NCBI RefSeq assembly: GCF_014218805.1
Contig: NZ_JACJUV010000001.1
Span: 4,104,501-4,168,500, forward strand
DNA from: Teredinibacter franksiae
GTDB taxonomy: Bacteria; Pseudomonadota; Gammaproteobacteria; Pseudomonadales; Cellvibrionaceae
Length of the DNA stretch: 64,000 nt
Direction of reading: 5' to 3'
A program made the position numbers and the translations under genes. Below are positions 37,616 through 52,083 of the stretch, in pieces (the stretch's first letter is position 1; each line of letters opens with the position of its first letter). The notes under the pieces are model-generated. The model had not been told where the DNA came from, searched no databases, and saw only the letters and a program-made list of their open reading frames with translations.

Positions 37616-38050
37616 TTACCAGCAGCTTTCACCGCCGCCAGATGCCGACTCAATGCCTCTGTGGGTAAGGGAGAGGTTTGCGCAAGTCGTGTCGCTGACT
37701 TGGTTGTTTACAGGGGTTGCAACGACGGTAAATGCAGAGGCTGTTGCGCCTGAAAGAGACATTTGGTAAACCCCTCCTGTGGAATTGACGGAAGAATCAC
37801 CGTTATTGTTCACATAAAAGGTTGCGGCAGGGTACCCCAATTTTGTGAGGTCGGTGGTGTAACTTTTGTTGTTGACGAAATATTGTTCTTGACGGGAGAC
37901 CAGTGTCATTAAGGCTGTTTTACCAATACTGCGATTGTTTTTAATAACGCTACTTTGGTAAGACGGTACCGCGACGGCGGCAAGGACTGCCACAATAACG
38001 ATTACTATCATCAGTTCGATCATGGTGAAGCCGCGGTTGTTTGAAATCAT
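37616..38050 (-). CDS. pilE: Type IV pilin PilE, copy 1
   Basis: 144 residues. A class III leader (MISNNRG) is cut before FTMIELMIVIVIVAVLAAVA, with the Glu5 needed for pilus assembly. Tyr-rich mid-part and a C-terminal disulfide loop (TTCANLSLTHRG... ESCW) match PilE minor pilins. It is the last gene of the minus-strand minor-pilin set, 23 bases after pilY1. It has a paralogue at 51667-52083. Confidence 0.93.
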   Translation of the reverse strand: MISNNRGFTMIELMIVIVIVAVLAAVAVPSYQSSVIKNNRSIGKTALMTLVSRQEQYFVNNKSYTTDLTKLGYPAATFYVNNNGDSSVNSTGGVYQMSLSGATASAFTVVATPVNNQVSDTTCANLSLTHRGIESASGGGESCW

Positions 38051-38073
38051 GAACGCTGTCTCTTGGTATTTAG

Positions 38074-41000
38074 TTAAAGGGTGTCAACACCTGTTTCACG
38101 CCAGTAAAGCAACCACATAGAGCGGCCACCTACTTGAATTAAATTATCGCTACCCGAAAAATTGGTATTTGCGGGAATGGTTTGTAAACCTGTTCCCGGT
38201 AATAGAATGGTGTCGCCATTTAGGGCAATAGGTGAAGCTGGAATGCCTGGACCAATATCGATCTGCCGAGAGTTCGTAAAGGAGGCTGAGCCGTCTGATA
38301 AATTCATGAGATAAAGGTTGCCATTTCCCTCGCGTGGTGCGCACGAAGATCCTGCTGCCGAATAGGGGGTGTAGCTCGTGAAAAATACGGTGCCATTGCT
38401 TACTAGCGGTGAGGACAATCCTTTTTCTCCGGATTGCGAAAGTTCCATTTTCCAGCCGTAATCATAGGTGAAAGCTGCACAGGTTGTTGCGCAGCTGGTA
38501 ACGTCGGTTAAGTTGGTGTCATCGGTTGTTGTAGCACTTGGCGAACCTGAAGCAATATAGCGGTCTTTAATCATGTACATGTAGTTCTGGTCGGTACTTT
38601 CCAGTGGGTTTGCGCGGTCGCCGGAGGCAATGACTACGGCATCGTAAAAACCATTGTCATCTTTTGTTTGGATGACGTCCGGTGCGTGAAAAAAGCGAAC
38701 ATCTTCACTGTCTGCTGCGTCGCTGAGGTCGGCCAATACGGAAATATCCCAATGGTTAAGGCGATGGTTGGTATCGGCGGAATCTCCCTCTGGAAGGTCA
38801 ACCCTCCACACCTGGCCGCCGGTGTCGCCCACATAGACGCGGTCAACAATGCCGTTTCTGTTGCTGTCCAAAGTCGTTGCTGTAGAGGGTATGCTGTACT
38901 GTAGGCTGGCGTGTTCGTAGCGGCCGTTATTGATAGCGGCGGTGCTAGCACCGTAGACGGCTTTCCATATAAGTGTGCCGTCGAGCGCATTAACGATAAA
39001 AATGGCATTGCCTTCGGTGTCGGCGCCACGGCTGCCGTCTTCATCGGTAGCGGTCGCATCTTTGTTGGTGTCGTAGCCACCTGCAAAGATGAGTGTATCG
39101 TACGTAATGCCGCCAAAGCGCACTTTGCTGACACGAGGTGTCGAGAAGGTATAGCCCATTTCAGCGTAATCGCTCATGGTGTTGCTGAGTTTACCTATGT
39201 AGCTAGGTGCGGCCGTTGGATCGCTGGCGTCCATGGCGTAAATACTTTTACCTCCGCGACGCATACCGACATACACGTTAACAGTATCGCCTGCTTCAAT
39301 GGTGCCGTCGGCGTCTAGGTCTTTTACTAATGCAACGGGTTCGCCGTCCACTCCGTACAAGTGATCCGAAGTGACATTGTCTTTAAGGGTTTTAAAATTG
39401 GCCATTACCTCTCGAGGAATGAACCCGAATACTTCTTTTCCCGACTGTGTGCCTCCGCTAGTAGTGTTTTCAAATACATGGAAAAAGCCATCATTTGTGC
39501 CCATAAATAATCGGATATTGGGGTTCGCTTCTGTGTAGCCTGCCGTTGCGCCATAGTTAATGGTGAGTGGCCGGGAATGTATGGCGTCGCCTAACAGCCA
39601 GCTGCGCGCTTCGGATTTATCGCTGTCACCGTCTTCGTCGTCGGCATCTTGCCCTCGCGCCCATTTGATCACCTCCAATGCTTCTGCCGTACTTGCTGCA
39701 CCTAGCTCCGCTTGCCAGCTGCTAGCGTTAGCGTTGGATGCATCGAAGGCTTCTAGTGCTGAGCCGGAAGTGGGCTCTAGGTAAAGCTGGCGGGTGCCGG
39801 TTGTTGTGGTATCGCCTATGGAGCCACTGAGAAAGCCGGGTATCATTTGGCCTGCCCCTCCGCGATTAACCGCGCGACCATCGCGTTCTGAGACTTCATT
39901 GTCGGCAGGGTCGGCTGGAGGAAGCGCGTTGGCATCTGTCCAGTAGGTGAGTGCCTCGTACTTTATGCGGCCATCGGTACTATTGAACGCTTCTTGACCC
40001 AGAGCGTCGACAATTTGATCGGGTATGCCGTCTAGGTCACTGTCATGTAGTCGAAGTTTTTTAAGGTTGCCATTCCAGCGCGCAGTTGCATTGGCTTCAA
40101 ACAGTGCGATATAGAAGTCATCGAGTATTTGTATACGATTGAATACGTTAACGGGAATGGAAGCTGCTACGAAGGTGGTGCTTACACTCAGGGCTTCAAC
40201 AAATGCCGATTCCAGTTTGGTTTGCACATCAAACAAATCGGCGCTCTTACCGCCTATGTTCATATATTGGTCGTTAGTGTCCGCGGCTATTGCCCAATTG
40301 TCAGCTTTCGCTGCCGAGCTGCCCATTTGAATGTACCAAGTTTTCAGGGTTTGATCACCGGGTATGAAGGGGAGTACGTCGTTGTTAGTCATGTAGCTGA
40401 CCATTTCTTCGTAACTGGATGCGCCGTTCATCACTGCACCGATTTGCGTATCCAAATCATTGTCGGCACCGCTGGTATTGCCCGACGTGGCGTAAACTTC
40501 GTATAAATTGGTGCACTCAAAATTACTCGGGGTACCGGCGAAGGGCGATTTGTACATCGGCTTGCCGGGTATACTGTTGTCGATAATATTAGGGTCGTAG
40601 TTGGGGGAAGCGGTGCCGTCAAAGTTGTCGCTCGTTTGGTCACCATTTAATACGGCTAGGCCATTAACGTAGCTGTACCACTCGTAGTGGGTTTCTTTTG
40701 GTGCGGTGTCATGGAACTGGTTACCACTTTTAGGTAGTGGCATTGAATCCAATATGGCAATGAGTTCAGCTTTGGCACCATTGGCACCATTGGCACCATT
40801 GGCATCACCGGCTTCAAACAACTTGTAGCCGCGTAATATGGTTCCGCCGTCAGAATTATTGGGGACCATTAGACCAACGTTAATACCTTCAAATTTATTG
40901 AAAACTACGTTTAAAACCGCAAGGGTTGCATGAATATTGTTGGCTGCACCGTTTACCCCGGTAAATGATTGTAGTGACGCCAGAAGTTCCGCGTGAGCGG

Positions 41001-51351: not shown

Positions 51352-51657
51352 ATGAAGTTATTTTTTACTGTTTTGCTTTTGATAGTATCTGGGAGCGCTA
51401 TAGCCCAAGAGTTTTTCTCTGGGAAAGTTGATGATATTTATGTTGTTGGGCAAAGAATTGTCATCGATGGTGAAGAATATCGTTTTTCAGGAGATACGAA
51501 AATAATCGTATCTGGGAAGCTTATAAGTGTTTACGCCTTACGTGAAGGTCATCCGGTTGAGTATGCACTCGATTATCAAGCTACAGGGCAAAAAAAAATT
51601 AGAGCGATTAAGTTGCTTATTTCTGAGGAAGAAGCAGCGCAGTATCTCAATCATTAA
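51352..51657 (+). CDS. pilY2: PilY2-like small secreted protein
   Basis: 101 residues with a signal peptide (SGSAIA|QEFFSG). The remainder (KVDDIYVVGQRIVIDGEEYR) looks like a small beta-rich fold. The position between pilY1 and pilE is that of pilY2 in Pseudomonas aeruginosa, where it is needed for fimbrial biogenesis. Copy 1 has no equivalent between its pilY1 and pilE. Confidence 0.8.
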   Translation: MKLFFTVLLLIVSGSAIAQEFFSGKVDDIYVVGQRIVIDGEEYRFSGDTKIIVSGKLISVYALREGHPVEYALDYQATGQKKIRAIKLLISEEEAAQYLNH

Positions 51658-51666
51658 GGGGGTGAT

Positions 51667-52083
51667 ATGACAATAAATCAGAAGGGTTTTAATTTAATTG
51701 AGTTAATGATTGTGGTAGCTGTTGTCGGAATTTTGAGTGCTATCGCGATACCGGCCTATCGCGATAGCGCACTGAAAAGCCATCGGGCAGAAGGTTTAGA
51801 GTTATTGCTGCAGGTAGCACAAAATCAGGAAGTACTTTATTCACAAACTAATGCCTATTCCACTAATGCGGTGCCCTTTGCGCCGGTAGCCGCAACGACT
51901 ACAAGTGAGCACGGCTATTATGTAGTATCGGTTGCACAGGGCGCCTGTGGAAATGCTTCTTGTTTTATTGCTACCGCTACAGCGCAGGGAAGCCAGACCG
52001 ACGATGATGAATGCCTAACTATCACTATTGATAGCCTTGGCGGTCGTGGGTCCACTCCTCTTGGTGGTGAGTGTTGGCAATAG
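51667..52083 (+). CDS. pilE: Type IV pilin PilE, copy 2
   Basis: 138 residues. The leader MTINQKG precedes FNLIELMIVVAVVGILSAIA with Glu5; GGGGG upstream supports the start. It ends with a disulfide loop (DECLTITIDSLGG... GECWQ). It closes the plus-strand operon; no T-tailed terminator is visible before the convergent CYTH gene. Confidence 0.94.
   Translation: MTINQKGFNLIELMIVVAVVGILSAIAIPAYRDSALKSHRAEGLELLLQVAQNQEVLYSQTNAYSTNAVPFAPVAATTTSEHGYYVVSVAQGACGNASCFIATATAQGSQTDDDECLTITIDSLGGRGSTPLGGECWQ

What the first reader, a model, noticed from the sequence alone, without database searches (positions are those of the whole stretch)
37616..52083. Two back-to-back paralogous minor-pilin/PilY1 operons, one seemingly decaying
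Both strands carry fimT-pilV-pilW-pilX-pilY1-pilE in the same order, diverging from one 784-base spacer. Even small details repeat: a 10-base fimT/pilV overlap and a 178-codon pilX. The protein sequences differ strongly, so this is an old duplication or a separate acquisition. The plus set is intact and has pilY2; the minus set has two apparent lesions (fimT start, pilX stop), lacks pilY2 and has a PilY1 without MIDAS. Either one set is being lost, or the cell keeps an alternative pilus tip.
Basis: partly seen in the sequence, partly recalled or inferred. Interest (0 to 1): 0.75.

Follow-up and report, generated by a model that had tools for sequence, protein, structure and literature searches.

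The report
Spare pilus-tip gene set, freshly broken
A bacterium related to shipworm symbionts carries an old, second set of genes for the tip of its gripping (and perhaps DNA-catching) hairs next to the standard set, and in this one isolate that spare set has recently been broken although near-identical intact copies exist elsewhere.

Summary
In detail: two divergent fimT-pilV-pilW-pilX-pilY1-pilE operons lie around a 784-base spacer. The plus set is intact. In the minus ("m") set, the fimT frame opens on ATA and pilX has an in-frame TAA at codon 53.

The m-set is neither a young duplicate nor long decaying. It is a separate tip module, found (by its PilY1) in 5 of 144 family genomes; a congener has the same back-to-back layout with all frames open. 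Against that congener, five of six m genes look at least as constrained as their plus partners. Missing MIDAS and pilY2 are not lesions: all 19 aligned m-type PilY1 rows share D-x-R in place of MIDAS on a predicted vWA fold, and none of the five m-sets has room for pilY2. Both lesions are recent, since near-identical intact proteins exist in a protein collection. A second optional set of this genome also has three in-frame stops; the two sets present in all eight genus members are uninterrupted.

Most likely an alternative type IVa pilus tip, possibly for DNA capture (m-FimT carries the GRxR motif of DNA-binding FimTs, plus FimT does not), and probably inactive in this isolate.

The parts
43357..43884 (-). 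m-fimT: GspH/FimT-type minor pilin with C-terminal GRxR (TGRARLS); no normal start codon, frame opens at ATA 43882-43884
   Evidence: a near-identical 175-aa protein with a normal N-terminus exists (P0009)
42794..43366 (-). m-pilV, intact, 190 aa
   Evidence: TIGR02523 type_IV_pilV above cut-off
41794..42834 (-). m-pilW, intact; start approximate
41251..41787 (-). m-pilX: 178-codon frame interrupted by TAA at 41629-41631 (codon 53), otherwise open
   Evidence: intact near-identical protein P0001
38074..41229 (-). m-pilY1, intact, 1051 aa; vWA domain without MIDAS plus C-terminal beta-propeller
37616..38050 (-). m-pilE, intact, 144 aa
43885..44668 (.). 784-base spacer between the two divergent operons
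   Evidence: 760 bases at the same place in congener G006
44669..45286 (+). p-fimT, intact, 205 aa, no GRxR
45277..45798 (+). p-pilV, intact
45817..46950 (+). p-pilW, intact
46950..47486 (+). p-pilX, intact, 178 aa
47534..51346 (+). p-pilY1, intact, 1270 aa, with MIDAS-like motif DDSGSM
51352..51657 (+). p-pilY2-like gene, 101 aa, named by position and by homologues beside the plus set of congeners; no Pfam or NCBIfam hit
51667..52083 (+). p-pilE, intact, 138 aa

Best explanation
The minus operon is a complete, ancient, optional type IVa pilus tip (priming) module that works alongside the canonical plus module. Its PilX-PilV-PilW-FimT minor pilins would carry a MIDAS-less vWA/beta-propeller PilY1 to the pilus tip. 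Because m-FimT bears the GRxR motif of DNA-binding FimTs, the module is best guessed to serve a different ligand from the plus tip, plausibly DNA. In this isolate the module is very probably off: PilX stops at residue 52, so m-PilY1 should not accumulate, and fimT has lost its normal start. The loss is recent and isolate-level, part of the turnover of optional tip modules in the genus; a second optional set in the same genome is also interrupted. Shown here: anatomy, lesions, intact near-identical proteins, constraint, distribution, predicted fold, motifs. Inferred: function as a tip, DNA as ligand, loss of activity.
For: Complete m-set in the same back-to-back place with all frames open in congener G006. 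Full-length m-type PilY1 (over 1500 bits, the next match 656) in 5 of 144 family genomes, G000, G006, G020, G012, G082 (at most 5 candidates scored per genome), each with the six-gene set. The m-PilY1 tree puts the window with G006, then G020, as rpoB does, which fits vertical descent. Constraint not weaker than on the plus set in 5 of 6 genes. Near-identical intact proteins for m-pilX (99%), m-fimT (98%) and the fourth set's pilY1 (98%). Among the tip sets compared, no stop in the 8 plus and 8 third sets of the genus; stops in the window genome's m- and fourth sets and in G082's m-fimT. An ab initio scan of 400 kb of the same genome gave one comparable candidate. GRxR in m-FimT of 3 of 5 genomes, and in 0 of 8 plus, 0 of 8 third-set and 0 of 4 fourth-set FimTs. 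Literature: GRxR is the conserved motif of DNA-binding FimTs (PMC8897410, passages) and of the DNA receptor FimT3 of Xylella (PMC9956873, passages). In Myxococcus, PilY1.3 does not accumulate without PilX3 (PMC7541494, passages).
Against: No expression or phenotype data. ATA can act as a weak start codon (recalled), so m-FimT might still be made. m-FimT of G012 and G082 lacks GRxR, so DNA binding is not a property of the whole module. All 8 genus genomes also have an orphan GRxR FimT beside the third set, which could carry DNA uptake alone. m-fimT shows a slightly lower position ratio than p-fimT (2.52 against 2.73). The sister alleles are seen only as cluster representatives; P0001 and P0009 are listed with no source, so strain and DNA are unknown. 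Vertical descent with several clean losses is not distinguished from transfer of the whole locus; congeners without the m-set keep no remnant at the site.
Confidence: 0.72

Rival explanations
1. Assembly or sequencing errors: the m-set is intact in the real genome.
For: Near-identical proteins elsewhere are intact. Five defects in two operons of one genome are many.
Against: All are in-frame stops or a start-codon change; no frameshift. The genome best matches T. franksiae Bsc2T, reported as PacBio RS II with HGAP assembly and Sanger-sequenced gap closure (PMC8346767, passages); residual errors of that chemistry are mostly indels (recalled). The other two tip sets and the rest of the 64-kb window show no comparable break (four same-frame neighbours flagged were judged to be adjacent genes). 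The sister alleles differ from the window at other residues too.
Confidence: 0.1
2. The defects are tolerated or regulatory: ATA is used as a low-efficiency start, and the pilX stop is read through or bypassed by PilX of another set, so the m-tip is still made at a low level.
For: Everything downstream of the stop, including the 1051-aa PilY1, is open. An early fimT stop also occurs in G082, where the rest of the m-set is open. Four related FimTs in the collection are listed with 160 aa, beginning inside the pilin signal, so non-standard starts may be commoner than annotated.
Against: G006, G020 and G012 have an ATG upstream of the m-fimT signal. The short predictions may come from an internal ATG behind a GAG that resembles a ribosome site (inference). 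PilX paralogues are too different to swap easily (no pairwise hit). TAA is not a usual read-through codon (recalled).
Confidence: 0.13
3. Long-running decay: the m-set has been under relaxed selection in this lineage and in the genus as a whole.
For: The m-type PilY1 is missing from 6 of the 8 genus genomes.
Against: The four other m genes are open, and pilX after the stop differs from the near-identical protein at one residue. Constraint equals or exceeds that of the plus set in 5 of 6 genes.
Confidence: 0.05

Closest known systems
Three minor pilin/PilY1 clusters of Myxococcus xanthus (PMC7541494; PMC13190605; passages seen)
   Same: Several FimU/PilV/PilW/PilX/PilY1 clusters serve one pilus machine. 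Cluster 1 or cluster 3 alone is enough for pili. PilY1 N-termini differ between clusters. The 2026 survey of 150 PilY1 proteins of Myxococcota reports MIDAS presence or absence without clear confinement to clades.
   Different: The passages seen describe no broken cluster. The window's m-PilY1 keeps a predicted vWA fold but has a fixed D-x-R in place of MIDAS. The two window sets are divergent neighbours.
Duplicated minor pilin/pilY1 sets of Xylella fastidiosa with DNA receptor FimT3 (PMC9956873; strain variation in PMC12700405; passages seen)
   Same: Paralogous tip sets with mostly opposing roles in motility and competence. One FimT has GRxR and binds DNA. FimT3 mutations are suggested to contribute to lost competence in some strains.
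   Different: Another lineage. Orthology of Xylella FimT3 and m-FimT was not tested, and I have no competence data for this bacterium.
Legionella FimT and FimT orthologues (PMC8897410; passages seen)
   Same: C-terminal GRxR, GspH/FimT family; about half of the FimT homologues there lie near other minor-pilin genes, the others are orphans.
   Different: DNA binding is shown there and only inferred here; the window's genus has an orphan GRxR FimT (8 of 8) in addition to m-FimT.
ComC (PilY1) cassette variants in Acinetobacter baumannii (PMC10374093; passages seen)
   Same: The comC-fimU-pilV genes behave as an evolutionary cassette with variant vWA domains.
   Different: There one cassette replaces another and all three ComC variants keep MIDAS; here two cassettes sit side by side and one lacks MIDAS.

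Membership tests
Type IVa pilus minor pilin/PilY1 tip module | fimT/fimU, pilV, pilW, pilX, pilY1, pilE in one gene run, each with its family domain | tested here: met
   Order and frames; Pfam. m-PilX is recognised by position and by its intact relatives; P0001 is just under the PilX_N cut-off (24.3 vs 25.5 bits), while P0002-P0004 and P0006-P0008 carry PilX_N in the collection's own annotation.
Type IVa pilus minor pilin/PilY1 tip module | All core genes intact in this genome | tested here: not met
   m-pilX in-frame TAA at codon 53, m-fimT without a normal start
Type IVa pilus minor pilin/PilY1 tip module | Proteins assemble at the pilus tip and prime assembly | not testable with these tools
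   needs genetics and pilus purification
PilY1 | C-terminal beta-propeller of the PilY1 type | tested here: met
PilY1 with MIDAS-type vWA adhesin domain | N-terminal vWA fold | tested here: met
PilY1 with MIDAS-type vWA adhesin domain | MIDAS D-x-S-x-S ... T ... D | tested here: not met
   D-[YWF]-R-x-[DN] in 19 of 19 rows of A3; no T-D-G at the third motif
DNA-binding FimT | GspH/FimT domain with C-terminal GRxR | tested here: met
   PF12019; GRxR in window, G006 and G020 m-FimT, not in G012 or G082
DNA-binding FimT | Binds DNA and is needed for transformation | not testable with these tools
   needs EMSA and transformation assays
Recent pseudogene | Disrupting change absent from near-identical alleles, rest of frame conserved | tested here: met
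   P0001, P0009; P0024 for the fourth set's pilY1

The most novel reading that the evidence does not exclude
The m-type module is a distinct class of pilus tip in which the vWA domain has become metal-independent: an invariant arginine (D-x-R-x-[DN]) takes the place of the MIDAS metal. In the window's own branch it is paired with a GRxR FimT, making a DNA-capture tip that is switched on or off at strain level by nonsense and start-codon mutations while the adhesive tip is kept.
Probability: 0.2. Interest if true: 0.65.

Novelty: new variant of a known kind. Interest (0 to 1): 0.45.

Why it matters
It gives a natural experiment on why bacteria keep several pilus tips. One strain carries two intact and two freshly broken tip modules, while intact alleles and an intact congener exist for comparison. 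The conserved D-x-R vWA motif offers a simple test of whether a pilus-tip vWA domain can work without its metal site. It also warns that "no MIDAS, no pilY2" should not be read as decay.

Tried and rejected
Rejected: MIDAS loss as decay (19 of 19 rows share the replacement). Recent tandem duplication (PilY1 sets split deeply; the tool flagged the join of m and fourth-set branches as meeting long branches, so their order is not used). Genome-wide decay, with limits: at its loose threshold the scan lists 30 places in 400 kb of G000 and 35 in 400 kb of congener G005, mostly adjacent genes in one frame; it recovers only 2 of the 4 known stops. A filter applied by reading the list (both sides 8 or more, no start codon in the next 12 codons) leaves 1 in G000 and 2 in G005 (one of these borderline). 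An earlier, stricter version found none of the known stops and was dropped. Conserved non-standard m-fimT start: suggested by four 160-aa database predictions but not supported by the three relatives whose upstream DNA showed an ATG. Remnants of the m-set at the empty site: none in G003, G005, G007, nor in the 7 to 9 kb fetched on the plus-fimT side of G001, G002, G004 (one 27-residue hit at E 0.027 and DNA hits of 30 and 25 bases at E 0.016 and 0.69 were taken as chance).

Not examined: of the 22 loci, 10 entered alignment A3; 3 are the G020 and G012 copies already in it; of the other 9, L073 and L079 have the D-x-R motif but interrupted frames, L075 and L080 lack it (L080 has an intact MIDAS), and L074, L076, L077, L078, L082 were not looked at. 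So 12 of the 14 loci looked at have the motif. G012's second, looser relative (L032) also has an intact MIDAS.

Led nowhere: genome-contig scan with a single sequence (nothing confirmed). The NCBIfam scan named only PilV above the cut-off among family-specific models; the general pilin-signal model TIGR02532 also passed. Two stop signs in G020's fourth-set PilX lie before the gene's start and were dropped (they appear twice because L029 and L094 overlap). Broken optional against unbroken core sets was not put to a formal test. L170 was fetched and not used. No report of this module was seen in the listings (six searches of open-licence PMC papers); none of them was aimed at the D-x-R motif by name.
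Full report
What is there. The window lies at 4,104,501-4,168,500 of contig 1 of a 5,406,307-base genome in 9 contigs. Size and unclosed state fit Teredinibacter franksiae Bsc2T (5.41 Mbp, not closed). Congener G004's chromosome length equals that of T. purpureus Bs12T (4,643,613 bases; PMC8346767, passages). The name of the window's own genome is therefore an inference; its G+C was 47.9% in a 400-kb sample and 47.7% in the window, against 47.3% published.

Anatomy. 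The plus set (p) runs 44669-52083 and the minus set (m) 43884-37616, both fimT-pilV-pilW-pilX-pilY1-pilE; only p has a pilY2-like gene before pilE. In m, fimT has no ATG, GTG or TTG before the pilin signal and opens on ATA, and pilX has TAA at codon 53. The other four m genes are open. The equal 10-base overlaps follow from FimT ending Cys-Pro-stop.

Four tip sets. The genome has four PilY1 genes. The third set (L005) is intact. The fourth (L006) has three in-frame stops, one in fimT and two in pilY1. No frameshift is seen in either broken set. In 188 aligned gene segments of 27 regions (two of which overlap), real stops occur only in G000's m-pilX, G000's fourth set and G082's m-fimT. The 8 plus sets and 8 third sets of the genus have none (that test does not see the fimT start loss, and the pilY2-like gene was not found in G002).

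Recent origin of the lesions. A 178-aa PilX 99% identical to the window's, a 175-aa FimT 98% identical with a normal N-terminus, and a 1658-aa fourth-set PilY1 98% identical over the piece searched are in the protein collection, all uninterrupted. They are cluster representatives; the first two are listed without a source. A scan of 400 kb of the same genome left one comparable stop candidate after filtering, at a sensitivity of 2 in 4.

Age and selection. G006 has both sets in the same place, with the same neighbours on either side and all frames open. The neighbours are called here ABC-transporter and porin genes on one side, CYTH and SMP-30 genes on the other; these names are from the look of the sequences, not from a call. 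G003, G005 and G007 have the porin-like gene and p-fimT next to each other, 1.2-1.6 kb apart, without m genes or remnants; in G001, G002 and G004 that gene was not in the stretch fetched. The rpoB tree puts G006 with G003 and G005, and the window genome with G001, G004 and G007 (some forks are under 95% support). Presence in the ancestor and several losses is the simplest reading; transfer of the locus is not excluded. The m-PilY1 tree (window, G006), then G020, agrees with rpoB. Between window and G006, amino-acid identity is 54.3-69.2% for m genes and 53.5-64.2% for p genes; third/second-position ratios are 2.5-4.2 and 2.3-2.9, with fimT the one gene in which p is the higher. So the m-set was kept by selection until recently.

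Distribution. Full-length m-type PilY1 occurs in 7 copies in 5 of 144 family genomes. Looser relatives extend to other Gammaproteobacteria (22 loci confirmed from 100 candidate stretches). Of 14 of these looked at, 12 have the D-x-R motif; L075 lacks it and L080 has an intact MIDAS. Ten were taken into alignment A3.

m-FimT. GRxR, reported as the conserved motif of DNA-binding FimTs (PMC8897410, passages; PMC9956873, passages), is in m-FimT of the window, G006 and G020, but not of G012 or G082. It is absent from 8 of 8 p, 8 of 8 third-set and 4 of 4 fourth-set FimTs, and present in the orphan FimT beside the third set in 8 of 8 genus genomes. Of 13 database proteins fetched out of 15 hits, 10 have it. 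Loss of m-FimT may thus be buffered by the orphan.

Likely working. By comparison with Myxococcus, where cluster 1 or 3 alone makes pili and PilY1.3 does not accumulate without PilX3 (PMC7541494, passages), the m-set should form its own tip, and the pilX stop should abolish it here. Both steps are inferred.

Verdict. The m-set is a new variant of a known kind (multiple tip modules), freshly inactivated in this isolate; it is neither a young duplicate nor an old wreck.

Noticed in passing
L006 (G000 C1:1559000-1575000), stops at locus 14472, 10970 and 7760, minus strand: The fourth tip set of the same genome has three in-frame stops (fimT one, pilY1 two); an intact 98%-identical PilY1 exists (P0024).
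   Followed up: yes
L167 (G082 C1:1725000-1744900), minus strand, 15126-15128: The m-fimT of a genome from another genus also has an in-frame TAA just after the N-terminal helix, with the rest of its m-set open.
   Followed up: partly
L028 13343-16597 (G006) and L030 12218-15433 (G020): Second, orphan m-type PilY1 copies with no minor pilin gene recognised nearby, next to a divergent pair of genes of about 210 and 580 aa in both genomes; the smaller one of G006 has HEAT-repeat similarity just under the cut-off.
   Followed up: partly
L029 10099-19400 (G020): In G020 the m-set is followed on the same strand by a fourth-type set, so tip modules sit in tandem there.
   Followed up: partly
L005 5180-5776 (+), G000: Orphan FimT with GRxR beside the third tip set, present in all 8 genus genomes.
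   Followed up: partly
window 28824-29940: A stretch of about 1.1 kb without an ORF of 70 aa or more that passed the overlap filter, inside an otherwise densely coding region.
   Followed up: no
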